64,000 nucleotides of DNA from Polytrichum commune (taxonomy: Eukaryota; Streptophyta; Polytrichopsida; Polytrichales; Polytrichaceae). The notes beneath the pieces are model-generated. The model made no database searches and was not told the DNA's origin. It saw nothing but the letters and a program-made list of their open reading frames with translations. This document shows, in pieces, positions 1 through 64,000 of this stretch (positions are counted from its first letter, which is position 1; every line of letters starts with the position of its first letter). Both the position numbers and the translations under genes were made by a program. The stretch is from positions 43,043,554 to 43,107,553 of the forward strand of contig OX485803.1 in assembly GCA_950295325.1 (NCBI GenBank), given 5' to 3'.

Positions 1-1916
1 GGGTTGTTTGGACTTGTCACAAACTCGATAAACAATTGGTCAACCTCTGCCTGAAACGTGCGGGCGTCGCCAGCCCAATATAGGAGCCGAGATTGCAGAT
101 AGTCTGCCATGACAGGATATCCCTGCAGTCCGGAGTAATTCAACATCCAAGTAAATTAGCATCACCACCTCCTCACTAAAGCAGTTTCCCGACCAACTTG
201 TCGGTTTTTTTAAAATTTTCCGTTCCAACTCCAAGATTTTGTAGAATATGAAGGCGTCGTAGGCAGCAAGTTTTTGCCATGCAATATTTTTCACAAATTT
301 GTAGGAAGTTGTAAAGAAGAGTCCAGATAATTGAGATTCGAGATTAGTCATATGCATGGAGTGGTGATATTGTAGGAAGAAGCCAGAGTGTAAACAATGT
401 CGTAACTCAAAATTTAGGATCAAATTCTATCATATGGATCAAATTCTAGAAATTCTCGGTATCTCAAAGTGCCTCATGTTGGCAAGTTAATCGTTCATGC
501 TTACGAGGAGTCTCACCTTTCTTGTGTGGTTCCACCACGTCGACCCAAGAGAGTTGCCGCGATCTACTTTTGCAATTGGGTTCTAGCGGCTTTGACATTG
601 ATATATGTTGTTTAGCAATCAAATTAAAGTGTATTCATTGTCTAATAGAATAGAATCATTGAAAACAAACAAACAAACAAAAACTGTCTCACACACACAA
701 ATTGCAAACAATACGGTCCTTGACAGTTTTGTTTTTACTCTGTGGTGTGTGTGTGTGTCTATTTGTCTATTTGTTTCCTTTTGTAGTATTGCCAGAATTT
801 TTTTTCATCGGAATGTTTACAAGCCATGATTAGGTGCCCAATTGTTCCGCATAATCCTAAGTTCAACCTATGATAAAGGAGTTTGTTGGCAATGTATGCG
901 TTTTTTGCATTCAGATCCATAGCAGTGTTCTGTGGGACTGACAATATTCCCCAGAAATATTCCCGAATATGTGAGGAATACTGCGTGGAATACTCTCAGT
1001 CCCACAGAACACTGTTATGGATCTGAATAATGTTATGTTGTCAAAAGAAAGAATAATTTGAACAAAAGGAAGAATGAAAGTGTAGACACTAATGAAGAAT
1101 TACTGACCGAGTAGTAAGGCGATTCAGCGACCACAGCGGCGGGTGTGGCGCCCGGCTCCTTGCTAGCCAAGGCGAAGAGAGCAGCTTGCAGGAGCTGCGT
1201 GCTGCCATTGCCAACCACTATCTTCTTGTCCCAAGTGATGGCATTGCCCACAAAGCCATGAATCTCCCGGATGGCATCATCCAACTCCTCGTGCACATAC
1301 CAAGGCCCAGTCAACTCCCCAAACGGCTTCTCCACGAAGTAGCTCATCAGGGAATCTGCGTGGCTAACAAAGATATGATGGTTCCTCTGTGGCTTCCAGA
1401 AGCTCTCGAACATCGTAGGGTCACCACTGCCACATTCATGAAGCAAGCACCGCACAATTCAAGAGATGATTAGTAGTCACAATACGAGTCCATGGATACC
1501 CTGGTCTACCAGACAAGATATTCCCATAATGGCAACTCTTCTTTCTAGAACTTCTTCATAGTATTCCCTGCCAATGCTTCTAACAGTTTATGATTTGTTG
1601 TTGTTTGTGAACGCTTGCAACATGCGTAGAAAGAGAACTCCAATGACACCATAAGTTTCTAAATCATAAAGGTTTTGAATTTCTTAAGTTTTTTTTGAGA
1701 ATATATATATATATTAATAAGCAACATTTCTCAAACATGGGTCACAAACATGGGTCATAAACTCTGATATTTTAGTGTGGAGAAAACATTAAGATATTTG
1801 CAAGGTCTCCAAATTAAAGAACTGCAATCATTCCAACAATCACTAGGTCAGGCGCATGGTTAATAATTTACTTACTGTTCGCAATGGAGCATGTGAGGAG
1901 TTCCGAGAGACAACAT
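1..1916 (-). CDS. TAR/alliinase-family PLP aminotransferase, 5' three exons (partial)
   Basis: Minus-strand gene that runs off the window start. Proposed exons are 1916-1876 (starts ATG, 13 codons plus 2 nt, donor GTAAGT), 1426-1108 (319 nt, acceptor GGCAG, donor GTCAGT) and 122-1 (acceptor CTGCAG). The first junction rebuilds the HGDPTMFESFWK motif. Exon 2 carries the phosphate-cup motif IVVGNGSTQ and ends ESPYYS. Exon 3 reads YWAGDA then FVTSPNNP, where the first Asn of NNP is a PLP contact in the family. Family members such as Arabidopsis TAA1 convert tryptophan to indole-3-pyruvate; alliinases are C-S lyases of the same fold, and I cannot tell which applies. The start is chosen because an in-frame TAG lies upstream of the ATG. 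The catalytic-lysine exon segment is off window. Every visible residue is canonical, unlike the plus-strand copies. Confidence 0.82.
662..768. repeat. AAAC, CA and GT simple repeats in intron 2
   Basis: Short runs of AAAC near 662-682, CA near 690-700 and GT near 744-758. The CA and GT runs are complementary to each other and could pair. No coding function is visible. Confidence 0.6.
912..1025. mobile_element. Foldback (MITE-like) element in intron 2 of the minus-strand TAR gene
   Basis: Two 30-nt arms (912-941 and 996-1025) are reverse complements with a single mismatch, separated by 54 nt of AT-rich loop. The element lies in the intron between exons 2 and 3. No clear target duplication is visible, so the superfamily is open. 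The transcript would form a strong hairpin here. Confidence 0.7.
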
Positions 1917-3498
1917 AGTTCGAGTGATTGGTAGCCAGCCACGGCTGCGGTTGCAAGTTGCTCGCTGGGACTAATTGATTCTGAGCTCCTACACCTGTAG
2001 ATTGAAGCATTCAAATAAGATTGGGACACAATTCATTCCTCCCACTAAAATGTCCATTGACCCTAGCATATTCTTTATGGAACCATAAGTTAGAAGATAC
2101 TATATTAGAATAATTGGCCTCTGAATGTTTTCCAAATGCATAAACATGATGATTCAAGGCGGTCACGAATTGCAGAGAGACTTGAGAAAAATAAAGGACT
2201 TTATTTTTTATTTTTTTAATTTGGTTTTGTCTTCATCCCATGGGCACATTTATTTACATCAACCATGTGGTGTGACGACCGATACTAATTCCTATTCACC
2301 CACCACCAAATCCTTTTACTTGGATAATATCAGACAACACATCATTTCAAAGCCAGGCTGCACCACGCTGACTCAAAGTGGAAATCCGAAACAGGCAGAG
2401 AGACTCGAAGTACATAAAGAATAACTGGTGTCGTCTTACAGTTACTATATTTCTCACTGGCATATGCAATAAAGAGATCTGTTTTTTTTTACTATAAAAA
2501 GGACCATTTCGTAGAATCTCCTTAGCCATCTTCAATCCCCTAGCTGAACAGGTAATGTCGGCGAACTAGCAACCTGCGATCCTGTGCAACATTAACATCG
2601 TCTGTTCTCCGCTAGAGTATGGAGGAAGACATTACATTAAATACTTGAGACTCACAGCACTACGACCAGCTTCATCCATGGGAGAATCTACACAACTCTC
2701 ACACCAACACCCTCGACCCGCCACGACAATTACACGAGACTCAATCGTTTTCCGAAATGACGTACAAGCAGCAGCTCTTGAGTCTCGCTGTAGTTATTCT
2801 AGCTTAACTTTTGCACTAATTAACCGCGTTAACATGTATTCTTCCAAAGTTTGCAATCCCACAACAACAAATTCGCCGGAACACGTAGTAGCTCTGGCGA
2901 CTCACAAGACGTTCTCAAGTCCTTGCTACTTGGAGCATGCGATCATGCGGAATAAAAACGTGGCCAACAGAGAATGACTCACAGCTCGACAGTAACAACA
3001 GCATGAAAATTAGCTGGAAATTATAATACGCCCCATGAGCTATATAGCCAACTTGAAGCAGGGGTAGAATGATTCGCTGCCCGCCGACTCGCCTACCTAT
3101 CAGGCTACCACATTAACAAAATAATGTAAGAATTAACACTCACCTCCAAGTGCAATGAAAACGTAACCCCTCCCTCCTCACCTCTCACAGATACCGATCG
3201 GTCGACCGATCAGGTGCAGGCAGCATGAAGTATTGTGCAAGCTGTCGATCGATGGACGTCACAAGCTGGCCCAAAAGCAGGTGCAGCAGCACCAATACCC
3301 ACTACAAGTTAGCAGGGAAAAATTGAAGCCTGCGAATTGTTGTGGTCGGCCGATGTGGTCCAGCTGCTGAGCAAGTGAGATGTCACCGAGGAGATTGATG
3401 CCTCAAGGGTGGATCATCACAACGCAATCCAAGGCAAGGTCAGGATCCCAATCACAACACTTGCTCCCCGGCAGTGGCGCGGAGCAGAGCAGAGTAGC
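1917..3498. other. Non-coding spacer upstream of the minus-strand TAR gene
   Basis: No reading frame with recognisable content. The stretch includes the presumed promoter side of the minus-strand gene and a small palindrome around GATCGGTCGACCGATC near 3196-3211. Open frames at 2125-2424 and 2645-2977 show no domain or coding bias that I recognise. Confidence 0.5.
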
Positions 3499-7872: not shown

Positions 7873-8309
7873 CACTGTCCGGGGAAGGTTTTGGGTATGT
7901 ATAATACATAGTCGGTCAAGATCCATGTGATTCTAAATCCACCCGGTTACATGTTGACATCTTCCGGTTTTGCTTTAAATTCATTCATTCGAAGTATATT
8001 CCACTATAGATTCCCCTAATATGACCGGTAATTAATTTCTCCTGAAGTCCCGAACTTTCAACCGGTTATTTCTCAAACTCAACCGGTTCATTTTGGGCAT
8101 AATCGGTTGAGATGATCCTAGTGTTTGCAAATCCAACCGGTTACATGTTGATGACATCCTTCGGTTTTCCTTTATGAAATTGGGGCATATTCTTCCATAG
8201 ATTCCTCTAAAATGATCGGTAATCCTCCTGCCGTCTTGGACTTCAACCGGTGATTCCTCAAACTCAACCGGTTCATCTGTAACTAACCACCGGTTCTCCC
8301 CGGACATAG
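7873..8309 (+). mobile_element. Dimeric M1 element (hAT-type MITE)
   Basis: Two M1 units in direct orientation are fused. The first lacks its last about 30 bp and the second lacks its first about 18 bp, joined near 8085 where GGTTCAT runs directly into TTTGGGCATAATC. The outer ends are normal (CACTGTCCGGGG and TCTCCCCGGACATAG). The flanks GTAATCAC (7865-7872) and GCAATCAC (8310-8317) match at 7 of 8 positions, so the dimer appears to have been inserted as one piece. Confidence 0.75.
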
Positions 8310-8480
8310 GCAATCACTGAAGCTTACTTGAGGAGCTGCTGCTAGTACACAGTTGCCACACACGTCCACGTGGCAGTTACTTATTGGCCTAGGTGTGCAT
8401 GGGGACAGTGGATTGGAAATTCAAGATCGAGTCACGTGGGCCGTTGATTATTCACGAAGGAGGGACGTGACAGCTCTCAC

Positions 8481-9938
8481 TAACTGCCTGCCTGTCAGAC
8501 AGTCTGTGCATGCAGACTTGAGGTCGTTCGGTGACCACTCTAAAATTAATTAATGAGCTTCGGCTTGTGATGTTGTAAGGAAACGAAAGAAAAGTCCTAG
8601 TATGTGGTTGACTCACTCTTTCTAATGGTTATCGATCTAGTAACATATTTGAGTGTTTGGAAAAAGGGATCTATTATAGTATTTCTAGGGTTAAATTTGA
8701 AATAGTTAAGGGTAACTTGGGAGGGCGTCGATTAGAATCTTCACTTTGACGTCGACTTAGAATTCTTGCATTTTAATTTCGACTACGAAACTTGAAATGC
8801 CAACCTGTGTGATTCACTACTGTTAAATGGATGAGAGACGATTTTGTGACCTGATCCGACAACGAAAATTGTTGGCAGAGTTGGAAGTGCCTGCAATAAG
8901 GTCACATATCGTAAGTGGGCTTCAAATGGAACTCCTTAAAAGAAAAAGAAAAAAATTCCCGCTGACTGACACACTATTATATCTATGTTGCTATTCGTTT
9001 CTTCATATGTGGAGCTCATATGAATGTCTTAAGAAATGTCAAAGGGGGACTTCCCTTTCTTTTTCAAAATCATAGAGGTCATATCCCCCCACCCCTAAAT
9101 TGTGTTCACTATTCAGCTTAGAAAAGTTTATGAAATTTGAGGAGATTAGAGTTGGCCTAAATTAATTCAATGGGATTTTTCGAAGTTGGGAGCTGGTCCC
9201 TCTTGATTTTTTAATGGTTGTTTTCTTTCCACTTGTGATGTGGGCTCGGAGTTAGTGATTGAATTCGAATGTAGAGCAACTTATTCCCAGGGTGGCAACA
9301 CATGTATAATAATAAAAGGGTCATTGGAAAAATAAGGCAATTTTGGAAATAAGGAAACACATTTTGGTTCGTTGAGGACTAAATGCAATTTAACACCTCT
9401 TGGCATACCAAAACAAAATTCATCCTCAATGACATGATATATAATGTTCTTGGTTCAAAGCTTCTTGCTACCTCCAAGCATGCACCAAAGACTTACCTAA
9501 TATGGAAGGTGTGAAGTATGCAAAACAATGAGCTCCCGACCAAAAGTCATGTTGACGTATGAAGTAAAGAATAACTGCATGTGAACATGTGTTTTTTGTG
9601 ATGTCCATTCTTAGATCCACACCTTACCAGACACCACTCAAATAGATGTACCTGATTGAGATTACTAATTAGGCCCACTTCCCTTCAATTATAAAGAGGA
9701 GCCCAAAGCCTGGATAGTATTGTTGGATATCAATATTGTTTCAATGCATTTTCTCGCAACAAGGTGAAGTCTTGTTAGAATTTGGCTAATTATACTGTCT
9801 GTAAAGTAAATTATGTTGTAGTGGGTGTGAGGCTTGCTTCACCATGTAATTAATGCAGACTTCAATTGAAATGAAGTACTAACTTCCTCTTCACTAGAAC
9901 ATGAAAACGTGGACCTGAGCAATATAAAGGGTTGAGAT
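8481..9938. other. Non-coding part of block A with a dispersed-repeat copy
   Basis: No supported gene. About 9005-9140 is a minus-strand fragment of the dispersed R3 repeat (see 42670-42915), and 9590-9660 has another R3 end fragment. The open frame 8827-9075 contains no known motif. Confidence 0.45.
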
Positions 9939-10178
9939 CAGTGCCCGGGAAGTTTTTGGGCGTATATTGTCGGTCAAGATCCTACTGATTCTAAATCCAA
10001 CCAGTTACATGTATGTTGACATCTTCCGGTTTTGCTTTTGTTCATTTGATGAGGTATATTCCACTATAGATTCCTCTAAAATGATCGGTAATTCTCCTGA
10101 AGTCTCCCACTTCAAACGGTTATTTCTCAAACTCAATCGGTTCATCTGTAACCAACCACCGGTTCTCCCCGAGCAGTG
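9939..10178 (+). mobile_element. M1 hAT-type MITE with perfect 8-bp target duplication
   Basis: 240-bp element starting CAGTGCCCGGGAAG and ending CTCCCCGAGCAGTG. It is flanked by identical GTTGAGAT at 9931-9938 and 10179-10186. The CAGTG ends and 8-bp duplication are the hAT signature. The interior has the AACCGGTT-type motifs shared by the family and no coding capacity. Confidence 0.88.
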
Positions 10179-11524
10179 GTTGAGATACTTACTTTGGGTT
10201 CTTTTCAAAATAACATGGACCAGATGATTCCAAAGAGCATTTGTGCATCATTTAATATGGTAACCCTTATATCCTCATATTGAGTCCTTGGACTGCTTTT
10301 GTCCAGAAATTAATGGATCAAATGACAAATATGTACACTAAGTTAGACTTCCTTTTGTGCCAAAATGTACTAGACTGATACAAAATCGTGACAAAATTAG
10401 GAACTAATTGTAACAATGTTTTGGCGTGACTCACTCGTTATACTCTAATTCTGTCAGGTTAAGATTTCCTTTTGGGTATCCAGTGCAGTTCGGTGGATGC
10501 CAGAGTTATTGGACTAAGGTGCATGTATGTAGACAAGGTGGTCTGAGCCTGCCTGACAAAGTTAGTTATGAGTGCTAGGTATAATGTGATGTTAATTGGT
10601 TCGTCGTTCATGTTCTCCAACTTCTACCAACTAGATTTACACAACAAAAACTTGTATTACATTAGCAAAACTATGATGAAGCATTAGCAAAAATCGAAGT
10701 GAAAATTGGACCTCCCATGATATAGTTATGGTTATCGGAAGTGCATGTTTGTTGCTTCTTTAACTAAAACATATAGATACTCCCATTTTTGTTGCCTGAT
10801 GAACATGGAGTATTTAACAAAATTTGAAGATGTAAAAGTCCAACCGCTCTCAAACATATGCCTTTATGGACCTGTTTGATCTTCACCTAGCCACACACCA
10901 CTTACATATAGGTGTCCAATTAATAAAAGTAATTGAGCGGTTTTCATTTCAGATATTAACCAGTGCCGCCTATTCATATCTCAATCTCACCTTTGGATTG
11001 CAATTTGAGTCCTCCATGTGTTTTTAAGGAAAAGAATATGTACTGTACATTATTAGTCACACACTTACTAGATAGATTAAAATTTTCATGTTAAAATTTC
11101 TCATGTTTTAAAACTAATTATAATATGTTTACCCTGGCCCCTAGAGTCGAGGGTTTATGACAAATGCATGGAAATTATCTAGTCTCCCCGGGTGGCAACC
11201 ATCTAGAGCACTAACACGGTGACCACCTACAGAACATGGTTTAGAGATGTTATATCATTTCAAAGAAGCAATATTTGGGAGCTACTTTCACATTATACGC
11301 ATTTTTAAGACTAAGCATTCTACAAATAAAAATTATAAATTTTCTCAAAAGCAAAATTCAACACCTAAGATGATGACCCTTTTTTTTAGAAAGATTGATG
11401 AATCTAATTATAATTCTAAAAACGACATTTGAAAGACTAAATCTTTTTCAATTCAGACACTGATTGCATCAATCATCGATGCCCTTCCTCCAAGCATGTT
11501 TCTCCTCGTTGTGAACGAACAAAT
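10179..11524. other. Non-coding part of block A
   Basis: No gene is supported. The stretch 11170-11460 is one copy of a unit that recurs near 12260-12720 and, in block B, near 44380-44720; it contains a shared string around GGTTTGGAGC or GGTTTAGAGA. Functions are unknown. Confidence 0.45.
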
Positions 11525-11753
11525 AGAGTCTGGGGGGAATTTTGGGCATAATCGGTCAAACTCTTTGTATGTCCAAGTCCAACCGGTTACATGTTGACAT
11601 CTTTCAGGTTTTCTTCTTTGATTTGAAGTGTATTCTTCTATAGATTCCTCTAAAATGATCGGTAATTCTCCGGAAGTCACCAACTTCAACCAATTATTTG
11701 TCAAACTCAAGCAGTTCATCTGTACCTGGTGGTCAGTTCTCCCTGCTCATTGA
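11525..11753 (+). mobile_element. M1 hAT-type MITE with perfect 8-bp target duplication
   Basis: 229-bp copy flanked by identical GAACAAAT (11517-11524 and 11754-11761). The left end has decayed to AGAGTCTGGGG and the right end reads CTCCCTGCTCATTGA. In block B the equivalent site (about 44690-44700, ATAACAAAT) is uninterrupted, an empty site showing that this insertion followed the A/B duplication. Confidence 0.85.
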
Positions 11754-16768: not shown

Positions 16769-17005
16769 ATGTGGCCAGGGAGGTTTTTGGGCATAATTGG
16801 TCCAAATCCTAGTGTTTCCAAGTCGAATTGGTTACATGTTGTGATCATCGTTTAGGTTTTCTTTGTTGGTTTGGAGTAGTATATTCCACAGATTCCTGTA
16901 AATGATCGATCATTTTCTTGAAGTCTTGAATTTCGATCGGTTATTTTTCAAACTCAACCAGTTCACTGCATCACATTCAGAGACACTTGTTGCCCCGGTT
17001 CAGAG
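16769..17005 (+). mobile_element. M1 hAT-type MITE, degenerate copy
   Basis: Recognised by GGGAGGTTTTTGGGCATAAT at the left and the M1 interior (GGTTACATGTTG, then GATCGGTTATT and CTCAACCAGTTCA). The right end is disturbed by a duplicated CAGAGACACTTGTTG, so the exact end and target duplication cannot be fixed. Confidence 0.65.
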
Positions 17006-27506: not shown

Positions 27507-30500
27507 ATGGCAACCTTCCGTAAGCCTCAAGGTCGGCAAGCAAATGATGCCTCCATGGCTATGAATTTTCTCTACTGCGACCAGTAAGTAAATAATTATA
27601 TTTGGAGTCACATGTACCTACATTGATGCACATCTTGAATGCTGGCTGTTCTGTTGCAAAATGTTGTTGCACCCCATGTGGGCTGTTGGTCCTCAATGTG
27701 GACAAAGCTAGGTTTGTTGTTTGGAATGATTATCGTTGCAGGATGCTGATAACATTCAAAACGTATACTGGCCCAGAGATCATATGGGGCTATAGCTCAA
27801 AACCATTTCATTTTGGTATTAACTAGTGAATGTAATCCGGCCTTAACTTTTGTAGGGACGTCATTCTGAATTAGGTGATGAGTGATAGATCATAATATCC
27901 TCCTGCAGGCAATGTGGACCACAAAACCTCCTCTTTCCTATTTAATCGGTTGAGTCGAAGTTGGTCATACTTGATCAATATTGCAAGACTCAGAGGTTCT
28001 ATATGCACTTCTGATTTGGAAAGAAACGAACTTATTCAAATAATTTCTCCTCCAATTTCATTATAAGAGAGTAGTTGCAAGCTGTTTGCAATTTTCTGAG
28101 GATTAAGTGGTCCAGATGAAACGTGACCTGCCTTGCAGAGGAGGTAAGGACATTCACATGTGATTCACCTCCTGTTGGAATAGAAGTTCTTGTTCTAATT
28201 ATCAGGCAGAGAAACCTATATGCTAGGCCCATATGTCTTGCATATATTAATCAGGACCCAAGGAAGAGTTTTAATCGGATAATATTGTTATGGCTTTTCT
28301 CACCGAAGAGTATGCGAGGTTAAGTGTGGCTAAGTAGTCCACGAAGAGTCTAGAGTTTGTGTGTGCTCAGGGAGGCAAGTATTTAGTCGAAGCTAGCCCA
28401 CATAGTTTGCTTCTTCTGGTGTAACTCCCCGAGCACACATAGTTGTGAGACCATAAGTACCTGCGAGTTGCAGATTCTTCCACAAAACCGGTAGGTTCAA
28501 ATAGAATCTCTCTCTTGTGCCGTGAGCATCCCTGCAAGCGTCGAGTTGTTCAAGCCTCCTGATTTTTGTTTTCACAGAAAAAAGCTCATTTCGCCCCATG
28601 CTATGGTCGAGGTTTAGTATTCTGTTAAGGTTTGATGTCGCCATGGAGGAAGTGCAATTACTTGGTCACAGCTTGCATATTTCAGTTACACATGTTTCAA
28701 TAGCAATGTTTCACGTGCAGCTCACTGAAGGTGTTTCATCTTTTTTGTCGTTGCAGCGGCGATCCAATCATGTACGAGAGGTTCTGGCAAATCCACAAGA
28801 ACCGTTTTGTTTTCGTGAACCATCCATCTGACAGGGTGAGCTACTTGTGCAAAAGCAGCAGTTATGTGCCGGGGCTGCCGTGTTACATGAGTGGTGAGCT
28901 GGAGGGAGCCATCAGGGAGATCCATGACTGCATTGGCAATGCTGTTGTCACCAAAAAAACAATTGTGGTGGGGAATAGCAGCTCCCAGATTCTCACTGCC
29001 GCCCTCTTTGCTCTCGCCAACAGAGACGAGGGTGCGCCCTCCACTGCTGTCGTAGCAGCGGCGCCATATTGCTCTGTGAGTTGAATCTTTCATTTCACTC
29101 TACTCCCACAAACTACAATTCTGTTTCAAACTTCATGTAAATCTGAACCATTAGTTTGTCCAAGCGAGTGACTTGTGAAATCTTCTGTTGCATGTGCACA
29201 AAGTATAAAATATTCATCTCGCAAAATCTTGTTGTTTGGGTCAGCTGATGCATGATTTCCGTCTGTAAATTTATAAAAATGATAATTTGATATAGAAGTC
29301 CAGCTCGGGGTGGTTGGTCTTGCATCACAGACTAACCCTAACAGTTCAGAGCAGCATCTGCAACCACGCCGTTCCTTTGATTTGGTCATGCAATCTTCAC
29401 ATTGCAGAAGCTTCAAACTTCAGTTAAAGATTCTATCTTGGAGTAGATGTGAAATCTGTTGGAGATCTGCACAAGTGTATAATTTCTCAGAAGCTCTTGC
29501 TGCTTGGGTCAGATGATAAGTATTCAATGATCTAATTCTGTTGTCTGTGCGTAACTATGATTTATGCTAAATTTTAATTTGATGTATAACTCCAGCTCGA
29601 GGTGGTTGTTCTTGCATCTGGACAGACTTACCCCAACGTGGCAGACTCGCATCTGGCAACCTCACTCTTCCATTGGGCTGGCGATGCAAACACGTACCAA
29701 CCCAAACAAGGGGAAGCAGTGATCGAGTTTGTAACCACTCCGAACAATCCTTGCGGCTCTCTTCGCAACGAAGTGGTGGTGGGTGCAGCGGCGGGGCAGA
29801 CTCGCCGGAAATCGGTGGTGCACGACATGTCTTACTACTGGCCGAGCTTCACTCCGATCACCGAGGCTTGCAATAACGACGTCATGGTTTTCAATTTGGC
29901 CAATTGCATCGGTCATGCAGGAGTACATCTGGCGTGAGAAATTTCACTCATCGATCTTTCCTACAAATTAATATGTTGACACAATCTTCACATGCATAAG
30001 TCTAACCCATCAGGCTAAGATCTGGTGACTAATTTCTGCAAGTTAGGTGGCCATGGAGAGCAATCACTAATGAGTTTTGACTGCGTTAATGTCAACTTAT
30101 TGACATTAATAATGTCACAAATATGACATTTTCTCTCAGTGGAAGCTTAGAATGTCACAAAGTTGACAAACGAATATGAGATTAAATCCTCTGGATCCCA
30201 GTAGTGAATATAATTTTTTGTGTGTGTGCTCAAAGCTGCTAATTTTATAATTTCTGCAGCCTGTATATTAAGGCAAAGGTAATAATTAGTAGAAAGTAGT
30301 AATGGTCTGCTGTCTTCCTTTGCAGCTGGGCGATTGTAAAAAATTCTGTGGTTGCTGAAAAAATGACACAGTACATTGTCAGAAACACAGTTGGGCTTTC
30401 GCATGATACTCAAAACCGCGCAGCTGTGTTGCTCCGGGCCACCTTCAAGGGGTATGAGGATTGCGAAAAAAATCGAACGTTCTACTCTAAAGACCTCAAT

Positions 30501-31997
30501 GACTTGATTGCCAACTGCAAGTTTTTCCATTACGGAAACTCTTTGATGGAATCTCGCTGGGCGAGGGTGCGGGCCGCGCTTGCTGGGAATGCGGGTTTCA
30601 GTCTGCCACAGCCAAATCCACCTGATGGTTGCACTTTCCTTGGCACATATTTTTCAACTCATCCAGGTAAGAAATATATACTCCAATATAAAATGAAATA
30701 CAGATATATTTGACACATCTGAAACAAATATTTGATTTAAAAAATTAAATTTCCCACTGCCAGAAAAACCATGCAGTTATAATTATATTGTAGGGAGCAA
30801 GTTGAATGCCTAGGTAGCTGGAATAGAAAGTTAGCTGGATTTGTAGCACACAAGAGTCATGCGCAGTGTGTATGTTTGACAAAGTTTTTGCAAGTTTTTG
30901 ACATTTGACACGCAAAAACTTGCACAAAAATAAAATGCACGTCAATTGACACGCACGATTTAGAAGTTGACATGTAGTGTGACTTGTGAAGAAAAAAACC
31001 ACACGTTAATTGACATTTAGAAATTGAAATGACACATACCCCTAGGCATGTGACATTGAGGTGACATTTTAAAAGAAAATGTAGATGTCAATTGACATTC
31101 ATTTTGTGTTTTTGAAAACGTCACGTGACACTTTGGATTTGAAGTTGAATGTCAAATGAAATTTGTCAAACATACACACTGGTCATGCGGCTTGGTCCAT
31201 TTTATTCACATGATCTCTGCCTAGCTCCATGATTTTCAAAATATATCAAGCTTGATTTCAAGTTGTAGAGTAGGTTACATTCAATACCTCATAAGAATGC
31301 GTGAGATTTGAAATGAACTGCATGATATTACATATTACCGAGGCTCGTCTTGTGATTGCACAGATGGACTAAGCTAGATGGGTCTTAAGTGGTCTTAAAC
31401 TTTTTCCGACTTCTCCTAGGATAATATGAAATGCATGCGATAAGTACGAGATGGTTAGCAAGTCCAGCTTTACAAAGTTCCCTCACAGTTTTCGGAGCTC
31501 ACATGAATATCTTATTCATTCTGAAAGTGAAGATTCTCGTGCTCATTAATTAGAGGGTCATATAGGTCCCCCCCAATTATGTTGACTACTAAACAGACTT
31601 AGAACAGGTTATCAAATTTTGAGCACGTAGACCAATCTCTTTCAAACACACAATGCCTGCAATTTGGCAGCTGTTTTTGGAGCCACACCTAACCACATAT
31701 CATTCAAATCTAGATGTCCAATTGAATAAGATAAGTAACTGAATTAAGCACGTCTACCTTAGCTAGACACATATGTTCAATGAGGCTACTAATTGTGTGG
31801 TGACTTGTTCAGCGTTCATGTGGCTGAAGTCCGAGAAGGAGGGCTCCGATTGCCAACTCATTTTAAAGCGAAATGGCATTCTTGGCCTTGGTGGCGAAGC
31901 ATTTGGAGTATCGGCTCAATATGCACGCGTCAGTTTGGTGAATCAAGAGGCTTATGTGGATGAGCTTGTCGATCGCCTTCCATCCCTACGAGCCTAA
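27507..31997 (+). CDS. TAR/alliinase-family paralogue with the PLP lysine replaced by Asn (copy C), five exons
   Basis: Exons 27507-27583, 28757-29075, 29596-29933, 30326-30666 and 31813-31997 join to 1260 nt: 419 residues plus TAA, against 391 in Arabidopsis TAA1. All introns start GT and end AG. The first junction rebuilds CDHGDPIMYERFW (His26). Phosphate-cup motif IVVGNSSSQ at 95-103 (canonical GTGSTQ or GNGSTQ), NNPCG at 182-186 (canonical NNPDG), Asp209 and Tyr212 in HDMSYYWPSF. The active-site motif FSKITGHAGSR of TAA1 reads LANCIGHAGVH here, so the Schiff-base lysine is Asn235, the preceding Ser is Ala and the Arg is His243. The substrate-side ARVS arginine is kept (Arg397). The frame is open throughout with a good AACAATGG start. 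A role as a transaminase is doubtful; a regulatory pseudoenzyme or a recently dead gene are both possible. An upstream leader intron is likely, so an N-terminal extension cannot be excluded. Confidence 0.85.
29170..29595 (+). repeat. Tandem copy of the intron 2 end and exon 3 start inside intron 2 of copy C
   Basis: An exon-3-like start after an intact acceptor (AG at 29302-29303, then CTCGGGGTGGTTGGTCTTGC) precedes the real exon 3 start at 29596 by 292 nt. The similarity includes the upstream intron sequence (TTGGGTCAG) and covers about the first 70 nt of the exon. It contains indels relative to exon 3 and is out of frame, so it is a decoy or fossil exon. Confidence 0.7.
29902..29904 (+). 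other. Asn235 codon at the position of the catalytic lysine
   Basis: AAT in exon 3 lies 26 codons after the conserved Asp209 of HDMSYYW. In TAA1 the lysine (Lys217) is likewise 26 residues after Asp191. A single base change from AAA or AAG would account for it. Copy B has AAT at the same place (50309-50311). Confidence 0.8.
30864..31181. mobile_element. hAT-like MITE in intron 4 of TAR copy C
   Basis: 318-bp element with ends CAGTGTGTATGTTTGACAAA and the reverse complement TTTGTCAAACATACACACTG. Both sides carry GTCATGCG (30856-30863 and 31182-31189), an exact 8-bp duplication. The interior is rich in TTGACA/TGTCAA motifs. In pseudogene B the matching site (50859-50866, GTAATGCG) is uninterrupted, so this insertion is younger than the C/B duplication. 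Confidence 0.9.
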
Positions 31998-35019: not shown

Positions 35020-35213
35020 TGTTCGTGGTGTTCTAAGATTTCAAGAACATGAACGCACAGAAAGATGTGCTCAAACTGCGAGGAGCTGCTGCAAACCAAG
35101 AGATTCCTGCGCGAGGTGGTTGACATTTCGGCGTGTCAGCTCAATACAATCGCCTGAACTTGATCGGCCGGCAGGCTATGACAAAGTTCTTGATTCAGAA
35201 GCTCGACGCATGA
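35020..35213 (+). pseudogene. Decayed last exon of a TAR/alliinase-family gene
   Basis: One frame reads HFGVSAQYNRLNLIGRQAM and continues to a TGA at 35211-35213. This matches the end of copy C (AFGVSAQYARVSLVNQEAY, then about 20 residues to the stop). An in-frame TGA directly precedes the His and the upstream part is only weakly alignable. No matching exons 2-4 were found nearby, so it is an orphan remnant lying about 3 kb downstream of copy C in the same orientation. Confidence 0.6.
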
Positions 35214-40382: not shown

Positions 40383-40901
40383 GTGATTGAATCTAAGTGA
40401 CCAGTGTCTAGAGAGACTTTTGGGCATAATCAATCGAGATCAGGCTAGTGTTTCCAAGTCCAATTGGTTACATGTTGTCATCTTCCGGTTTTTATTTATT
40501 AATTTGAGGTATATTCCATATATTCCTCCAAAACGATGGCTAATTTTCCTGAAGTCTTGAACTTCAACCGGTTAAGGTAGAAATACCATAACCCGTGAAG
40601 ATAAGGTGATTTGCATTGAAGATCTGGTCTGACAATCATGAGATAATTTTCCAAGATAGACGAGAAGGATTCATGAAGAATGCAAGTTGTTTCATATTTT
40701 TCTACCCTATACAAAAAAAATGCTACAATTTTTCAAAGTGGAACGTTGTTCAAACCCCTACTCATTCACTAGATTCTCCCTACACCGAACACAGTACTCC
40801 GCATTTCCATACAAAACATCGCCTCAATCAGTTACCTCATGAGTACATTAACACTTGACTCCCATTGGCTACACTAAGTGTACACGCATTGAAGTTGCTG
40901 C

Positions 40902-43382: not shown

Positions 43383-43603
43383 CAATGAACGGGGAGAGCC
43401 AACTGCTAAGTAACAGATGAACTAGTTGAACTTAAGAATTACTGGTTAAAGATCAAAACTTCAGGTAACAAAAACCAAGCATTAGAGAAGAAACACCTCA
43501 ATTTAAAAAAGAAAAACCAAAAGATGAAAACACGTAACCAGTTGGACTTAGAAACACTAGGAGGATTTTGACTGATTCTGCCCAAAAATCTCCCCGGAGA
43601 CTG
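43383..43603 (-). mobile_element. M1 hAT-type MITE, inverted
   Basis: Minus-orientation copy from CAATGAACGGGGAGAGCC to CTCCCCGGAGACTG. The flanks GACCCACT and GACTCACT match at 7 of 8. It faces the plus copy at 43702-43938 across 98 bp. Confidence 0.78.
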
Positions 43604-43701
43604 GACTCACTTAAGTTCCTATGTGGAAGTTGTAACTATTCTACATTACAAAGAAAATTAGATGAACCAGGAGGACATCTCAAACTCACCTTGTTTGCAA
43701 T

Positions 43702-43938
43702 CAGTGTCCGGAGAGATTTTTGGGCCGAATCGGTTGAGATCCCAGTGTTGTGTTTCCAAGTCCAACCATATGCATGTTGACATCTTTGCGGTTTTCCTTC
43801 ATTAATTTGACGAGGTATATTTCTAGATCCCTCTTGAATGATCGATAGTTTCCTTGAGTCTTGAACTTCAAATGGCTAATTCTCAAACTCAACCGGTTCA
43901 TCGTTGTTTATCTGTCAGTTCTTTCTCCTCATTCATTC
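43702..43938 (+). mobile_element. M1 hAT-type MITE
   Basis: Starts CAGTGTCCGGAGAGATTTTT and ends CTCCTCATTCATTC. The flanks TTTGCAAT and TTTACAAC match at 6 of 8, consistent with an old insertion. It forms an inverted pair with 43383-43603. Confidence 0.75.
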
Positions 43939-47580: not shown

Positions 47581-48878
47581 TTTAAATGTGCTTGGGTGTT
47601 ATTCGGTTGGTTTTTCATGTTCTCCAAATTCTACCTCAATGTCCACGAAGTAGAGGTTAGGCATGTCGTTTATAATGATTATTGTTGCAGGATGATGGAA
47701 TCCAAAGCTTATACTGGCCGAAAGATCGTATGGAATCAAAGAAAGCTTGTAGCCGTTTCCTATTTCGTTGATAATTGATAGTCTACTAAACTGCTACTCA
47801 ATAGGAAAATCAGGCATGGCATACCAGAACTGTTGAGCACATTTTATGTGCTGATTAACACCCTTTGAAGTGTTGTAGGGAAATCATCATATTCTAAATT
47901 GAAAATTTTATAGATCCTAACCTCCAGCCAATGTGGGGCACAAAACCTTCTCTTACTTCGTCTGGATTAGAAGCTGGTCATACATCAAAACTATATAGAG
48001 TCTAGAGGAATCCTCTATATGCACATAGGATTTGGAAAGGAGGGAAATTACTGAGAGGTGATTTCTCTAACTTCCAATTTGAAGATAAGATTATAGAAGT
48101 TGCACAGTCTAGCTGTACATGAAATTTTCTGAAAAGAAAACGGTGAGGTTGATACATCACTTGCCTTGCAGAGGAGGAAGGACATTCACATGTGAGTCAC
48201 CTGATCCTCTCAAATCGTGAGGACATGACATCGTCATTAGTACTGTCTGCCTCCTGACGGAATAGAAGTGCTTGTAATTATCAGGCAGAGAACCCAATGT
48301 GCAACTCCCTCATGTCTTGCAAATATTAAGGCCCCAAGGAAGAGCTTTTCTCCAATAATGTTATGGCTTTCTCCACCGAAGAGCATGCGTAGTTGAAGTG
48401 TAACTAGTCCGCGAAAAGTGTAGAGTTATTGTGTGTGCTTGGGGAGCCAAGAATGCTTAGTCGAACCAGCCCACTGCTGCATCGAGCTTCCTCTTGTAGA
48501 CCCCCAAGGACACAGAGTTAAGATTGCTGGCCTTCTCTGTTTGGCCGCTGCACCCACCGCCACTTCTCTGTTGGCTGCCTTGAGTTGAAGAGACTTCCCA
48601 AAATCGGTCCATGCGTTCTCCACGTAGCTTCTGTCTCGTGTGCAGTGAGCATCCCTGCAAGCGTCGAGTTTGTTCAAGCCTCCTGATTTTTGTTTTCACA
48701 GAAAAAAACTCATTTTGTGCCATGCTATGGTCGAGATTTAGTATTCTGTTTAGGTTTGATGTCGCCATGGAGGGAGTGCATTTACTTGGTGACAGTTTGC
48801 ATATTTCAGTGCAGATTTATGTACAGCAATGTTTCCCGTGCAGCTTACTGAAGGTGTTTCATCTTTGTTTTGTTGCAG
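47581..48878 (+). pseudogene. Duplicated intron 1 of the TAR gene, upstream part of pseudogene B
   Basis: From about 47650 the sequence aligns with intron 1 of copy C (for example GATTATTGTTGCAGGATG at 47677 with GATTATCGTTGCAGGATG near 27727, and GCATCCCTGCAAGCGTCGAG at 48648 and 28527). No counterpart of exon 1 was found, so the pseudogene lacks a start. Confidence 0.75.
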
Positions 48879-51286
48879 CGGTGATCCAATCATATGCGAG
48901 AGTTCCTGGCAAATCCACAAGAACCGTTTTGTTTTCGTGAACCATCCATCTGACAAGGTGAGCTACTTGCAAAAGCAGCAGTTATGTGCCGGGGCTACCG
49001 TGTTATATGAGTGAGGAGTCGGAGGGAGCCATCAGGGAGATCCATGATTGCATTGGCAATGCTGTTGTCAACAACAAAACAATTGTGGTGGGGAATGGCA
49101 GCTCCCAGACTCTCACTGCCGCCCTTTTTGTGCTCGCCAACAGAGACGAGGGTGCGCCATCCACTGCTGTCGTAGCAGCGGCGCCATATTGCTCTGTGAG
49201 TTGAATCTTTCATTTCACTCTCCAACAAAGTGCATTAGAGTGTTTCAAGTTTTAGGTTAAGCTAAATCTTCTGTTTGTCTGAGTGAGTCACTTGTGGAAT
49301 CTTCTGTTGCATGTGCACAAAGTACATATATTCATCTCAGAATATCTATGTTGTTTGGGTTAGCTGATCAATGACTTTCGTCTGTCCTTAATATATGCTT
49401 TGATATATAGCTCGGCCAGCTCGAGATGGTTGTGTGGTTTTAATAAGGATTGAAATAGTTTGTGATTGAAGTCTTGCATCACAGGCTTACCCTGTAGAGC
49501 AGAGCATCTGCAAAGCATGCTCTTCCACTGGGCTGGTGATGCAATGGTCACGCTCCAGAAGTTCGAAACTCCAATTAAAGCTTATGTGATGGAGTGTTTG
49601 AATTATCTGTTCCATCTGCACGAGTATCTACATATATCTCACAATATCTTGCTGTTTAGGTGAGCTTATGATCCAGTGACTTTCTATTGATTGTGTGTAT
49701 ATATTGATATGCTAAATTGATTTATAACTCCAGCTCGAGGTGGCCGGTCTTGCATCACAAGCTGAGCCTAAATTGTCAGAGCATCTGCAAACCACGCTCT
49801 TTCCACTGGGCTGGTGATGCAATGGTCACGCCCCAGAAGTCTGAAAACCCATTAGATTCAGCCTCCTTGTTGGAGTAATTGGGAAATCTGCTATATCTGC
49901 GCAAGTAAATATATATCTCACAAAGCTTGTTGTTCAAGTCAGCTGATGGTTCAATGATTTTTTATCGTTTATGTGCAAATGTCACATCAATTTGAAGTAT
50001 AACTCCAACTCGAGGTGGTTGTTCTTGCATTTGGACAAGCTTACCCTACCGTGGCAGAGCATTCGGCATTCTCGCTCTTCCATTGGGCTGGCGATGCAAA
50101 CAATTACCAACCCAAGGACGAGGCAGCGGTGGTTGAATTCGTGACTTCTCCGAACAATCCTTGTCACTCTCTTCGCAATAAAGTGGCGGTGGGTGCAGCG
50201 GCCAAACAGAGAAGGAAATTGATGGTGCACGACATGCCTTACCACTGGCCGAGCTTCACTGCTGTCACCGAGGCTTGCAAGCACAACCTGATGATTTTCA
50301 CCTTGGCCAATTGCACCAGCCCTGCAGGAATGCATCTGGCGTGAGTCACTCACTTGATCTATTGTGCAAGTCACATGTTACAAGTATGGTTGCTGACACA
50401 AGCTTCACATACTAACCCATCAGACTAAAAGTTGATGAATAATTCCTGCAAGTTGTAGGTGGACAGTAATGTTGTGACATGTGTATTCCTTTGCACCACA
50501 GTTGGGATTTGGCACGATACCCAAGGCCGCGCGGTTGAGCTCCTCTATGCCACCTCCAAGTGGTATGAAGATTGTGCTCAGAACTCTACTATTTACTCAA
50601 GAGACTTGAACGATTTGATTACTACCTGCATGTTTTTCCATTACGAAAATGCTTTGATGGAAGCTTGTTGGGTGAAGGTGCGAGGCGTACTTGCTACGAA
50701 TCTGGGTATTCATTGTGCCAGAGCCATGTGAACCTGATGGTTGCCTTTTCCTTTGCACTTGCTATCAACCTGTCCTGGTACATTGTATGGTTATTTAAAT
50801 TGATCGTTCAAGTCTCTAGAGTGGAAAGTTGGATTTTCAGTGCCTAGAGTTCTGAGGAGTAATGCGGCATGCTCCAATTCTTTCATACGCTCAACTCTGC
50901 TTAGCTCAATGACATTCGAAATGCAACAAGCTAAGTTGATTTCAAGTTAGGGATCATGACATATGTATCTTACAGTATCAGTGCTTGAGATATGAATAAA
51001 ATTGCATGACATACGATAGTCTTTAGGAATTATTGTTGATTGCATAGGTCGAGGCATTATGCTGTGAAGTTACTAACCCTTGCTATGCATGTGTTGTGAT
51101 GACTCAGCATTCGTGTGTTCGAAGAGGAGGACTCCGACTAATAGCTCATTCTGAAGCAGAAATGGCACCTTTGCTCTTGGTGATGCAACATTTGGAGTGT
51201 CGCCTATGTATGTGCGCATCAGTCTCGTGATGCAGGAGAATTCTGTATGTGCCCTTGTTGGACGTCTCCCATCCTTGTGCACTTGA
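48879..51286 (+). pseudogene. TAR/alliinase-family pseudogene B
   Basis: Exons matching copy C lie at 48879-49195, 50009-50340, about 50501-50777 and 51108-51286. Exon 2 is 317 nt, not 319: TG is missing from TTGTGCAAAAG, which shifts the frame at about 48970. The exon 3 acceptor is AA at 50007-50008. Exon 4 lacks about 60 nt at its start and has a 1-nt gain that leads to TGA. Exon 5 has TAATAG in place of TGCCAA. Exon 3 itself stays open and carries Asn at the PLP-lysine position (LANCTSPAGMH) as in copy C. The ancestor therefore had already lost the lysine when the two copies split. Confidence 0.9.
49290..50008 (+). repeat. Two tandem exon 3 decoys inside intron 2 of pseudogene B
   Basis: Exon-3-like starts after intact AG occur at 49420 (CTCGAGATGG) and 49734 (CTCGAGGTGG), before the true exon at 50009. 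The spacings are 314 and 275 nt. The first two extend further into exon 3 (CACTGGGCTGGTGATGCAA) than the decoy in copy C. Copy C has one decoy, so the array expanded or contracted after the split. Confidence 0.72.
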
Positions 51287-51393
51287 ATGGGTTAACGATC
51301 TTCATCTTTTCATGCTTCATCATTCACGAGCTACATTTTCATGCTTCTTTTTTCAGGCATGCAAAGATGGAAGACGTCCGACAAGGGCATCTA
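51245..51393. repeat. Inverted duplication at the end of pseudogene B
   Basis: GTGCCCTTGTTGGACGTCT in the last exon is mirrored by AGACGTCCGACAAGGGCAT at about 51374-51392, separated by about 100 nt. It is absent from copy C. Confidence 0.6.
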
Positions 51394-52719
51394 CAAGATT
51401 CTCTTGATTCAGTAGACTGATATGTGCAAAAATGTTATTTAGGCTCATGAACATGTGTAGGCCAGAAAAGTGGTATCAAGGAACAATTAATGGATAGACA
51501 GTCTCTCAAATTTTGTCACACTTATGCACTCTTTGATGCCTTTTTTCGAATGACATTTTGATGTAACTTGCGGCAACTACTGTATTATATTTCAATGCAT
51601 TGAAGTGAATACTAAGTCAATTGCCACTCTCAAAAAATTCGGTAATCATGGAGGCAAGAATTCTGCACATGAGTTTAAAGCTTCAGTTGAAACTCTTGTG
51701 TTGGTCCTTTTTTAGACAACACCGACTTGAAGACAAACCAGCATAATGGCAAACGTCTTAGTCTTGCGGTGCTAGATTATCATCCTCAAAAATTAGTCTA
51801 TGTTGAGATTTAGATGTGCTAAGTACTGGTGTTTTGGATACAAAGAGCTTCAATAAGCTCAAGTGAAAAGGATGGATGGTCACTAATCTCGAATTAAAAA
51901 TGAATCGCTGAATTGCACTGTCAATCAAATTCAAAGGCTCAACAAATTTGGTAAGTTGGAAGCTGAAATTAACCGCACATGATTTCATTCATGAGTCACA
52001 TTTCTCATGTTGACCCCTAGTAGACTAAACTGATTTCTTGACAAGCAATTTGGCACACGGTTCATTCATTGCGGTGCAGGCTTATAAATATCCTCAAGAA
52101 ATGAACCTAATGTTGAGCTTCAGATCTGGTGTTCTTGGGTGCAGAGGGATTTGATCTTCTCAAGACAAAAGAAACGAGTTGGATCCCTAATTTCAAACCA
52201 TGAAATCAGGGTTTTTAAGGTTTGCAAGCATAACACTACTCAGCGACATGGGCCCTAAGAATAATACAGTGGAATGTTGGGAGATCAATCCGAATTGGAG
52301 TCTCCAGGTGCAACTTTTCGAGCATCCCACTGTTATATTTCAAGGCCCCACGAAACAAGAGTTGTTTGCTAATGCTAAATACTGTTATGAGCTTCCTCAA
52401 ACTACTGAAGGAAACTTGACAAATATCGACACAACACATGGATTCTTGACCAATATGGCCTGACATCTCCCTGGACGATGGTTGAGCATCAAATTGCATC
52501 ACAAGGAAACTTTGGATCCTTGAATAAGAGCCTCTTACTGAATCTTACAGAGAACAACATCATTGTCGAAATTAAACTGACAATGTGTGCCAACAAGCCT
52601 TTACATTACATGTGCTGATGGGATGTGGCCACACCATGTCATCGGTCAGCTTAAATTATTCCAGTTTGTCAGTTGAACAAACTGAAGCCCCTGATAAGAA
52701 GATGTGCCTGAATCGAACA
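51394..52719. other. 3' flank of pseudogene B and spacer
   Basis: The first 200 nt resemble the 3' flank of copy C. The rest, including frames at 52200-52463 and 52236-52502, has no recognisable motif. Confidence 0.4.
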
Positions 52720-61379: not shown

Positions 61380-61925
61380 ATAATCAATGGAAAATGGTAA
61401 ATATTTCACAATAGATAATGGACAATAAATAGTAAATATTAAATAGACAGTAAATAGTAAATAGTAGACAATTATATAAATAGTAATTAAACAATAAAAA
61501 ATAAATGGTAAACATAAGTAGTAAAGAGTAATAATAGACTGTAAAGAGTAAATAAAAATAAAAAAAGTAGGTAAAAAGTAGTATATAAAAGTAGTATATA
61601 AAAGTAGTAAGTAAAAACAGTAAATAAAAATAGTAAGTAAACACAGTAAATAAAAATAGTAAATAAGAACATTAAGTAAACACAGTAAATAAAAATAGTA
61701 AATAAAAACAGTAAATAAAAACAGTAAATAAAAACAGTAAGTAAAAACAGTAAGTAAAAACAGTAAATAAAAATAGTGAATAAAAATAGTAAGTAAAAAC
61801 AGTAAGTAAAAACAGTAAGTAAAAACAGTAAGTAAAAACAGTAAATAGTATGTCGTAGATAGAAGACAATAAACGGTACATAGTAAATATTATACCATAT
61901 ATAGTAGATATTATATTTTATATAG
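61380..61925. repeat. AT-rich minisatellite, unit about GTAAATAAAAACA
   Basis: A 12-14 nt unit (GTAAATAAAAACA and GTAAGTAAAAACA variants) repeats about 20 times between about 61590 and 61850, with looser AGTAAAT repeats on both sides. Reading frames on the minus strand are purely repeat-encoded Phe, Tyr and Leu and are not genes. Confidence 0.85.
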
Positions 61926-62514: not shown

Positions 62515-62900
62515 GTTCAATAGTGCTATGAGGTGCATGCCTATGATACATAATGGCCTACAAGTTGACTAAAGTGCACACAAATGACATTGGCCACTAG
62601 TATGCTTAAGAAATGTCTTCCCCTTGCAAATTCAAATGCAAACACATGACACTTGCCATTCGTACGCTCAAAATATCTTCTCCCTTGCATACGAAAATGC
62701 AAGACTATCATCTAACATGTCCTAGTGTGCTACTCTAAATGTCATAACGTAGATGTCTTTTCACTTACAGAAGTTACTTATGTTGACGAATGGAATCATA
62801 TTGACAATTAGCAAACGTGGCACTTTGAAACCTCTAGATATCTAGTTCAATCCTTTCGCAAACAGTGTATGTGACACCAAACACCATAAACGGTGTCGTG
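62515..62900 (-). repeat. Dispersed repeat R4 copy, minus strand
   Basis: Inverted relative of 57648-57970, ending in CACCATAAACGGTGTCGTGAT next to an M1 element inserted at 62904. Confidence 0.6.
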
Positions 62901-62903
62901 ATC

Positions 62904-63138
62904 TAGTGATCGGGGAGATTTTTGGGCATACTAATCGGTTGAGATGATCCTAGTATTTGCAAGTCCAACCAGTGACATGTTGACATCCTCCGGTTTTCCT
63001 AGATTAAATTGGGGTATATTCTTCCATAGATTCCTATAACATGATCGGTAATATTCCTGCAGTCTCCAACTTCAACTGGTTATTCCTCAAACTCAACCGG
63101 TTTATCTGTAACTAACTGCCGGTTCTCCCTGATCAGAG
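62904..63138 (+). mobile_element. M1 hAT-type MITE
   Basis: Starts TAGTGATCGGGGAGATTTTT and ends TCTCCCTGATCAGAG; the flanks TCGTGATC and TAGTGATC match at 7 of 8. Confidence 0.8.
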
Positions 63139-63399
63139 TAGTGATCGTTCACTAGTTTCTGTTTTTTCTATGTTAAGAAGTATCTCAAGAGCTGCTACTA
63201 TACTAGCTACAAGCTTGCATAATTATAAGCTCAGAGAGAAAAGAGACAAGAGTCCACTCATACAATGACTTCATGCTGACCTCAATGCTTGACAATTTGA
63301 TGCGGCCACCTCCTTCTTGGGCTCTGTGCATGCGCCATTTACTTTTGCTTCTCTTCAACGGAACGAATCTCTTCAATGCATGTTTGGGCCACTTCCGCC

Positions 63400-63639
63400 C
63401 AGTGACCGAGGAGATTTTTGGGCATAGCCAGTTGACATCATCCTAGTGTTTGCAAGTCCAACCGGTTACATGTTGATGACATCCTCCGGTTTTTCTACAT
63501 CAATTTTGAGGTACATTCTTCTATGGATTCCTCTAAAATGATCAGTAATTCTCCTGCAGTCTTGAACTTCAACCGGTTATTTCCCAAACTCAACCGGTTC
63601 AATCATCTGCAACTAACCGCCGGTTCTCCCGGATCATAG
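63400..63639 (+). mobile_element. M1 hAT-type MITE with perfect 8-bp target duplication
   Basis: Starts CAGTGACCGAGGAGATTTTT, ends CTCCCGGATCATAG, flanked by CTTCCGCC at 63392-63399 and 63640-63647. This is the clearest copy; internal AACCGGTT boxes occur at regular places. Confidence 0.9.
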
Positions 63640-63697
63640 CTTCCGCCGCAGTAATTAAGGCTGGTTGGTGAGCCCTGGGGAAGCTTGAGATGTAGTT

Positions 63698-63933: not shown

Positions 63934-64000
63934 ATGTGGTTACTCTCTGTAATGGGACACCTACACTTTTGTTTGAGTGGTACCTATATGCTAAGGCTTG
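63934..64000 (+). repeat. Start of an R3 repeat copy, cut by the window end
   Basis: GGACACCTACACTTTTGTTTGAGTGGTA-like order as at 52725 and 42690; the remainder is outside the window. Confidence 0.45.

What the first reader, a model, noticed from the sequence alone, without database searches (positions are those of the whole stretch)
27507..31997. Intact five-exon TAR/alliinase paralogue lacking the catalytic PLP lysine
Copy C splices on paper to an uninterrupted 419-residue protein, yet the Schiff-base lysine is Asn235, the adjacent Ser is Ala, the Arg at the phosphate site is His243, the phosphate cup reads GNSSSQ and NNPDG reads NNPCG. Open frame and exact exon phases with a dismantled active site suggest a pseudoenzyme, for example a dimerisation or regulatory partner of true TAR enzymes in auxin synthesis. 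A gene on its way out is the alternative.
Basis: partly seen in the sequence, partly recalled or inferred. Interest (0 to 1): 0.8.

Follow-up and report, generated by a model that had tools for sequence, protein, structure and literature searches.

The report
Auxin-enzyme relative without its catalytic lysine
A plant gene related to the enzyme that starts auxin (plant hormone) synthesis has lost its essential catalytic lysine, yet its protein seems to have been preserved by selection long after that loss, so it may work as a non-catalytic partner or regulator rather than being a dead gene.

Summary
Copy C (27507-31997, +) splices to an open five-exon frame. Family exon borders put the third acceptor at 29625/29626, so the protein has 409 residues, not 419, and the catalytic position is Asn225 (AAT, 29902-29904). 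Ser224Ala, Arg233His and a changed phosphate cup are real. NNPCG is not damage: two Lys-bearing paralogues in the same genome read it too.

A second Lys-less copy, D (48879-51285), shares the Ala-Asn-Cys and His changes, so the lysine was lost before the copies separated. D is a pseudogene. With the nearest Lys-bearing paralogue as outgroup, third codon positions changed equally in C and D (24 vs 22); amino acids changed 8 times in C and 35 in D (p = 4e-5). C's protein was thus kept under constraint after losing the lysine.

Against: a branch codon model cannot tell C's omega from 1, exon 2 shows no recent constraint, and no expression data or plant orthologues could be examined. Best reading: a TAR-fold pseudoenzyme, probably acting through dimers with active TARs (last step inferred). 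Main rival: a gene now decaying.

The parts
27507..27583 (+). Copy C exon 1 (ATG; 25 codons + 2 nt; short N-terminus of about TAA1's length)
   Evidence: donor GTAAGT
28757..29075 (+). Copy C exon 2 (phosphate cup GNSSSQ, codons 28971-28988). Lies in a stretch of about 600 bp that is 88-96% identical to copy D, read as a gene-conversion tract
29626..29933 (+). Copy C exon 3: NNPCG, HDMSYYWP, Ala224-Asn225 in place of Ser-Lys, His233 in place of Arg
   Evidence: an acceptor at 29595 would not match the family border
29902..29904 (+). AAT codon (Asn225) at the Schiff-base lysine position (TAA1 Lys217; garlic alliinase Lys251 by the numbering of the alignment)
30326..30666 (+). Copy C exon 4
31813..31997 (+). 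Copy C exon 5, with the C-terminal Arg387 retained, and stop TAA
48879..51285 (+). Copy D: Lys-less tandem relative, a pseudogene. No exon 1 found; 2-nt deletion in exon 2; start of exon 4 with its acceptor deleted; two stops in exon 5; shares LANC, His and NNPC with C
1..1916 (-). Nearest Lys-bearing paralogue (exon 1 about 1916-1876, exon 2 1426-1108, exon 3 from 122 outwards; the rest lies outside the window in G000:C1, locus L064): reads SLSKSTGHAGLRLGW and NNPCG

Best explanation
Copy C is a lysine-less member of the plant TAA1/TAR (Alliinase_C) family: a TAR-fold pseudoenzyme. It arose from a Lys-bearing tryptophan-aminotransferase-like ancestor shared with the minus-strand gene of this window. 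It lost Ser-Lys and the phosphate Arg before its own tandem duplication, and the surviving copy's protein was then kept by purifying selection while the sister copy D decayed. Shown here: the lost pocket residues, the order of events, and the slower protein evolution of C. Inferred: without Lys and Arg it cannot hold PLP as an internal aldimine or transaminate. Because family members can dimerise with each other, its likeliest job is to pair with active TAR paralogues, or to bind their substrates, and so tune auxin synthesis, in the way LCB1/SPT1 or PDX1.2 go with their active partners.
For: Open five-exon frame with family splice phases. D shares the nine bases GCCAATTGC and the His codon, while exon 3 is otherwise 81.5% identical and the 100-base windows round the codon are 71-83%, so the shared Asn is old and not a recent conversion. 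Relative rate with the minus-strand gene as outgroup over 247 codons of exons 3-5: third positions C 24, D 22; first and second positions 30 vs 64 (p = 0.0006); amino acids 8 vs 35 (p = 4e-5). Stricter realigned, gap-trimmed set of 149 codons of exons 3-4: 6 vs 21 (p = 0.006), third positions 14 vs 9. At sites where TAA1 and garlic alliinase agree, exons 3-5, C alone keeps the residue 15 times, D alone 4 times. C against D, exons 3-5: NG86 omega 0.44 (bootstrap 0.31-0.65); ML omega 0.61, omega = 1 rejected at p = 0.010. P(no stop) under neutrality 0.005 at branch length 0.1. 51 of 63 invariant residues kept, losses concentrated in the pocket. The four spliced paralogues, TAA1 and garlic alliinase keep Lys. 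TAA1-TAR1 heterodimers and dominant TAA1-T101D: PMC6997161 (passages, section 7).
Against: The six-sequence branch model has no power on C: fixing its omega at 1 costs 0.02 lnL. In exon 2, which reports on the time since the conversion-like tract formed, I count 3 amino-acid changes private to C against 4 private to D, with 2 silent each (18 differing codons, 7 not polarised): no sign of recent constraint. In the strict set exon 3 alone gives only 5 vs 10; most of the contrast is in exon 4, 1 vs 11. C alone changed invariant sites that D keeps (G100S, S170T, T227I). Under a strong CpG and AT-bias null the pairwise omega is reached in 4% of runs. In exon 2 the minus-strand gene keeps 30 of 46 sites shared by TAA1 and alliinase, C 25 of 46. 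No transcript, orthologue, structure or interaction evidence was available.
Confidence: 0.55

Rival explanations
1. A gene on its way out: C was useful (perhaps as a pseudoenzyme) for most of its history but has recently lost constraint, and has not yet gained a stop or frameshift.
For: Its tandem sister D is already broken. Exon 2 since the conversion-like event shows 3 amino-acid changes private to C with 2 silent. C-only changes hit invariant sites G100, S170 and T227. Neutral survival of the frame against stops is still 69% at branch length 0.01 and 42% at 0.02. The branch model does not exclude omega = 1 on C.
Against: All splice sites and the frame are intact. The older record in exons 3-5 shows clear constraint.
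Confidence: 0.3
2. A still catalytic or ligand-binding protein with altered chemistry: the retained Asp199, Tyr202, Asn173 and Arg387 bind an aromatic amino acid, its keto acid or PMP, and Asn225 tolerates non-Schiff-base chemistry or sensing.
For: Asp199, Tyr202, Asn173 and Arg387 are kept in C. Some fold-type I proteins work without the lysine (recalled: sugar dehydratases with His in its place).
Against: Loss of the phosphate Arg, a cup Gly and the Tyr aligned with garlic Tyr165 (stacking role recalled) as well as Lys argues against cofactor binding. PMC6997161 set TAA1 K217A as a control because K217 is reported as needed for PLP binding.
Confidence: 0.1
3. An artefact: an assembly or base-call error turns AAA/AAG into AAT, or the splice model is wrong.
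For: One base separates Asn from Lys codons.
Against: D carries the same GCC AAT TGC 20 kb away, and Ser, Arg and Tyr of the pocket changed as well. The exon borders correspond to those of four paralogues.
Confidence: 0.02

Closest known systems
TAA1/TAR tryptophan aminotransferases (Arabidopsis TAA1, PDB 3bwn/3bwo)
   Same: Alliinase_C match over 25-406; HGDP start, HDxxYYWP, NNP, C-terminal Arg; no EGF domain in the Pfam scan; same intron phases as the TAR-like paralogues of this genome
   Different: Lys217, the Ser before it and the phosphate Arg are replaced; 35% identity to TAA1
Minus-strand TAR-like paralogue of this window (L064)
   Same: Nearest relative of C with Lys: 50.5% identity, grouped with C at support 1.0 in FastTree; NNPCG in both
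   Different: Keeps Ser-Lys, Arg and the GNGST cup
LCB1/SPT1 subunit of serine palmitoyltransferase
   Same: A PLP-enzyme relative without the PLP lysine that forms a heterodimer with the lysine-bearing SPT2 (PMC6148460, passages)
   Different: Different family; the complex was shown there by immunoprecipitation, here nothing is shown
PDX1.2 (plant vitamin B6 pseudoenzyme)
   Same: A plant paralogue not itself active in the pathway that interacts with active paralogues and is a likely positive regulator (PMC6071262, passages)
   Different: Unrelated family and pathway

Membership tests
Alliinase_C (PF04864) family | Profile match over the whole domain | tested here: met
   318.9 bits, cut-off 22, residues 25-406, profile 4-361 of 363
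Active TAA1/TAR tryptophan aminotransferase | Schiff-base lysine | tested here: not met
   Asn225; Lys in TAA1, garlic alliinase and the 4 spliced paralogues
Active TAA1/TAR tryptophan aminotransferase | Ser before the lysine and Arg eight residues after it | tested here: not met
   Ala224 and His233
Active TAA1/TAR tryptophan aminotransferase | Asp and Tyr of the pyridine site, Asn of NNP, C-terminal Arg | tested here: met
   Asp199, Tyr202, Asn173, Arg387 kept; their roles are recalled by analogy with aspartate aminotransferase
Active TAA1/TAR tryptophan aminotransferase | Tryptophan transamination | not testable with these tools
   needs purified protein
Pseudoenzyme | Catalytic residue lost while the protein stays under selection | tested here: met
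   8 vs 35 amino-acid changes against D at equal third-position rates (strict set 6 vs 21). This covers the older period; whether it still holds is unresolved
Pseudoenzyme | Expressed protein with a non-catalytic function | not testable with these tools
   no transcript or protein data
Pseudogene | Broken frame or splice sites | tested here: not met
   open frame, all GT..AG
EGF-type alliinase | EGF_alliinase domain before the Alliinase_C domain | tested here: not met
   only Alliinase_C at E up to 0.001 in the 409-aa model; exons upstream of 27507 were not sought
LCB1-like heterodimer subunit | Complex with an active paralogue | not testable with these tools
   needs co-immunoprecipitation

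The most novel reading that the evidence does not exclude
A stable lineage of lysine-less TAR pseudoenzymes exists in this plant and its relatives. It heterodimerises with active tryptophan aminotransferases and sets local auxin production, as a genetically fixed counterpart of the phosphorylation that switches TAA1 off.
Probability: 0.25. Interest if true: 0.8.

Novelty: new variant of a known kind. Interest (0 to 1): 0.5.

Why it matters
Lysine-less PLP-fold subunits are known elsewhere, but nothing in the listings of nine library searches pointed to one in the auxin-making TAR family; subscription journals are largely missing from that library, searches listed only part of their matches, and I opened five papers. 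If expressed, it would be a natural dead subunit of the first enzyme of auxin synthesis, and would give a direct test of whether auxin output is set by mixing active and inactive subunits.

Tried and rejected

NNPCG as a lesion: rejected, because Lys-bearing paralogues have it.

dN/dS against the minus-strand gene: the branch codon model was too saturated to resolve C's terminal omega. Free 0.58; fixed at 1 costs 0.02 lnL; set equal to background costs 0.51, with D's omega then running to its bound. The stem before the C/D split does reject omega = 1 (by 5.4 lnL), but its length is saturated. The relative-rate test replaced this.

Exon 2 was left out of the C/D tests of selection because of the conversion-like tract; its own figures are told separately (omega 0.447, bootstrap 0.18-1.15; private changes).

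Prokaryote and virus collections: 55 Streptomyces/Kitasatospora hits to part of exon 3 that look to me like other class I aminotransferases; 55 of 55 have Lys. They say nothing on plant orthologues; no viral relative was found.

Pfam scan of ten of the 34 ORFs of 90 aa or more in the window found nothing at E up to 0.01; no tRNA, and no Rfam match at gathering scores.

The organism was not identified; plant orthologues could not be searched.
Full report
What is there. Copy C lies on the plus strand between 27507 and 31997. I located its exons by reading frames and splice sites. Exons 27507-27583, 28757-29075, 29626-29933, 30326-30666 and 31813-31997 join with GT..AG borders into 409 codons and a stop. 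The protein matches Pfam Alliinase_C with 318.9 bits and, among solved structures, Arabidopsis L-tryptophan aminotransferase TAA1 best (E = 1.1e-68), then garlic alliin lyase. The four Lys-bearing paralogues that I spliced from the same genome (borders chosen by GT/AG and frame) align at the later border without the extra ten residues, so 409 is the better model and the catalytic position is residue 225.

The lost residues. In the alignment of C with four paralogues, TAA1 and garlic alliinase, the family reads S-K-x-T-G-H-x-G-x-R. C reads A-N-C-I-G-H-A-G-V-H. The codon at 29902-29904 is AAT. Sixty-three columns are identical in the six Lys-bearing sequences; C keeps 51 of 63. Twelve are changed: V85I, G100S, L104I, Y131C, S170T, D215N, S224A, K225N, T227I, R233H, G235A, D241N. 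Mapping the ten-residue pocket pattern described for Brassica napus TARs (PMC9811149, section 16 and passages read) onto the alignment is my own, after-the-fact step. Seven of those pocket residues are among the 63 invariant columns (Gly100, Tyr131, Asn173, Asp199, Ser224, Lys225, Arg233); five are lost, against 7 of 56 elsewhere (Fisher p = 0.0019). Tyr202 and the C-terminal Arg387 are kept too.

The neighbours. The window lies at C1:43043554-43107553 of a 407.8 Mb genome in 64 contigs. The 23 Alliinase_C matches (23 of 23 candidates scored) fall in seven places: the minus-strand gene that runs off the left edge of the window, C, a copy D at 48879-51285, three further genes (C3:14.17 Mb, C1:5.29 Mb, C2:63.43 Mb) and one fragment (C2:62.99 Mb). 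A search with C's exon 3 found six places in the genome: C, D and the four genes. The four genes carry Lys; C and D lack it. The nearest Lys-bearing relative of C is the minus-strand gene (50.5% identity; FastTree support 1.0). D was not in that tree; its tie to C is the long DNA match. D is broken: no exon 1 found, a two-base deletion in exon 2, a deletion of the start of exon 4 with its acceptor, and two stops in exon 5.

Order of events. C and D share GCC AAT TGC and the His codon, whereas exon 3 is 81.5% identical and introns 2 and 3 stand at K2P 0.37-0.39 (a distal piece of intron 1 at 0.24). The lysine was therefore lost before the two copies separated, or at the latest long ago. A later exchange is confined to about 28500-29100, where identity rises to 88-96%.

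Was C's protein kept afterwards? With the minus-strand gene as outgroup, over 247 codons of exons 3-5, third positions changed 24 times in C and 22 in D, so time and mutation look equal. First and second positions changed 30 and 64 times (p = 0.0006), amino acids 8 and 35 times (p = 4e-5). A stricter count on exons 3 and 4, realigned and trimmed around gaps, gave 6 and 21 (p = 0.006) with third positions 14 and 9 over 149 codons; exon 3 alone gave 5 and 10, exon 4 alone 1 and 11. Where TAA1 and garlic alliinase agree, in exons 3-5 C alone keeps the residue at 15 sites and D alone at 4. C against D has NG86 omega 0.44 (bootstrap 0.31-0.65). Simulated neutral pairs reach that value in 0 of 300, 0 of 300, 1% and 4% of 300 runs, depending on the mutation bias assumed. 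Maximum likelihood gives omega 0.61, and omega = 1 is rejected at p = 0.010. Neutral simulation leaves C's frame free of stops in 0.5% of 400 runs at branch length 0.1, and in 0 and 0.25% at 0.16 and 0.25, before counting indels.

Results against. A six-sequence branch model cannot tell C's omega from 1 (lnL -5124.59 against -5124.57) because the deeper branches are saturated. In exon 2, which records the time since the conversion-like tract formed, 18 codons differ; from the printed codons I count 3 amino-acid and 2 silent changes private to C, 4 and 2 private to D (one of D's silent ones, codon 66, beside an alignment gap), and 7 that cannot be polarised. So constraint is well supported for the older period and unproven for the recent one. 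C has also gone on losing invariant sites that D keeps (G100S, S170T, T227I). Over the whole protein C keeps 76 of 130 sites shared by TAA1 and alliinase; in exon 2 it keeps 25 of 46 where the minus-strand gene keeps 30 of 46.

Likely mechanism. PMC6997161 (passages and section 7 read) set TAA1 K217A as a control because K217 is reported as needed for PLP binding. It reports that TAA1 and TAR1 form heterodimers by co-immunoprecipitation, and that the inactive T101D form of TAA1 worsened the wei8-3 tar2-1 phenotype (54 of 342 against 8 of 451 seedlings). A lysine-less relative that can still dimerise would therefore be expected to act through active paralogues. That C dimerises, is expressed, or touches auxin at all is inference. 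Some members of the wider clade are themselves uncharacterised: TAR3 and TAR4 according to PMC9309667 (passages). A lysine-less partner of a PLP enzyme exists in SPT1 of serine palmitoyltransferase (PMC6148460, passages), and a plant pseudoenzyme that interacts with its active paralogues in PDX1.2 (PMC6071262, passages).

Known or new. Nothing in the listings of nine library searches pointed to a lysine-less TAR protein; one search listed 25 of 76 papers and 12 of 914. I opened five papers, in parts. I file it as a new variant of a known kind: a pseudoenzyme in a family where I found none described.

Noticed in passing
28500-29100 and about 48620-49220: C and D are 88-96% identical over about 600 bp round exon 2, against 52-88% in the other alignable 100-base windows from 27700 to 30700 (one with only 25 aligned bases reads 92%): a likely gene-conversion tract between a gene and its pseudogene.
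   Followed up: partly
29277-29393 with 29569-29689; 49471-50099: The intron 2/exon 3 border is repeated in tandem, one extra copy in C and more in D (period about 278, 2.3 copies), leaving decayed exon 3 starts such as FHWAGDA inside intron 2 of D.
   Followed up: no
L068, reverse strand 2384-3133 (G000:C2 about 62.99 Mb), matching window 48656-49500: A 0.75 kb piece of copy D (95-99% identical, with D's two-base deletion) sits on another contig; no 12-base inverted-repeat seeds were found in its flanks.
   Followed up: partly
7879-11753, 16771-16965, 40402-40575, 43384-43937, 62896-63935: A dispersed repeat family of about 160-240 bp in both orientations, perhaps a miniature transposable element.
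   Followed up: no
61556-61847: A 22-copy tandem array of the 13-mer AAATAAAAACAGT.
   Followed up: no
51356-51475 (-) and 35115-35204 (+): Further weak pieces resembling the TAR C-terminal exon, one of them inverted next to D.
   Followed up: no
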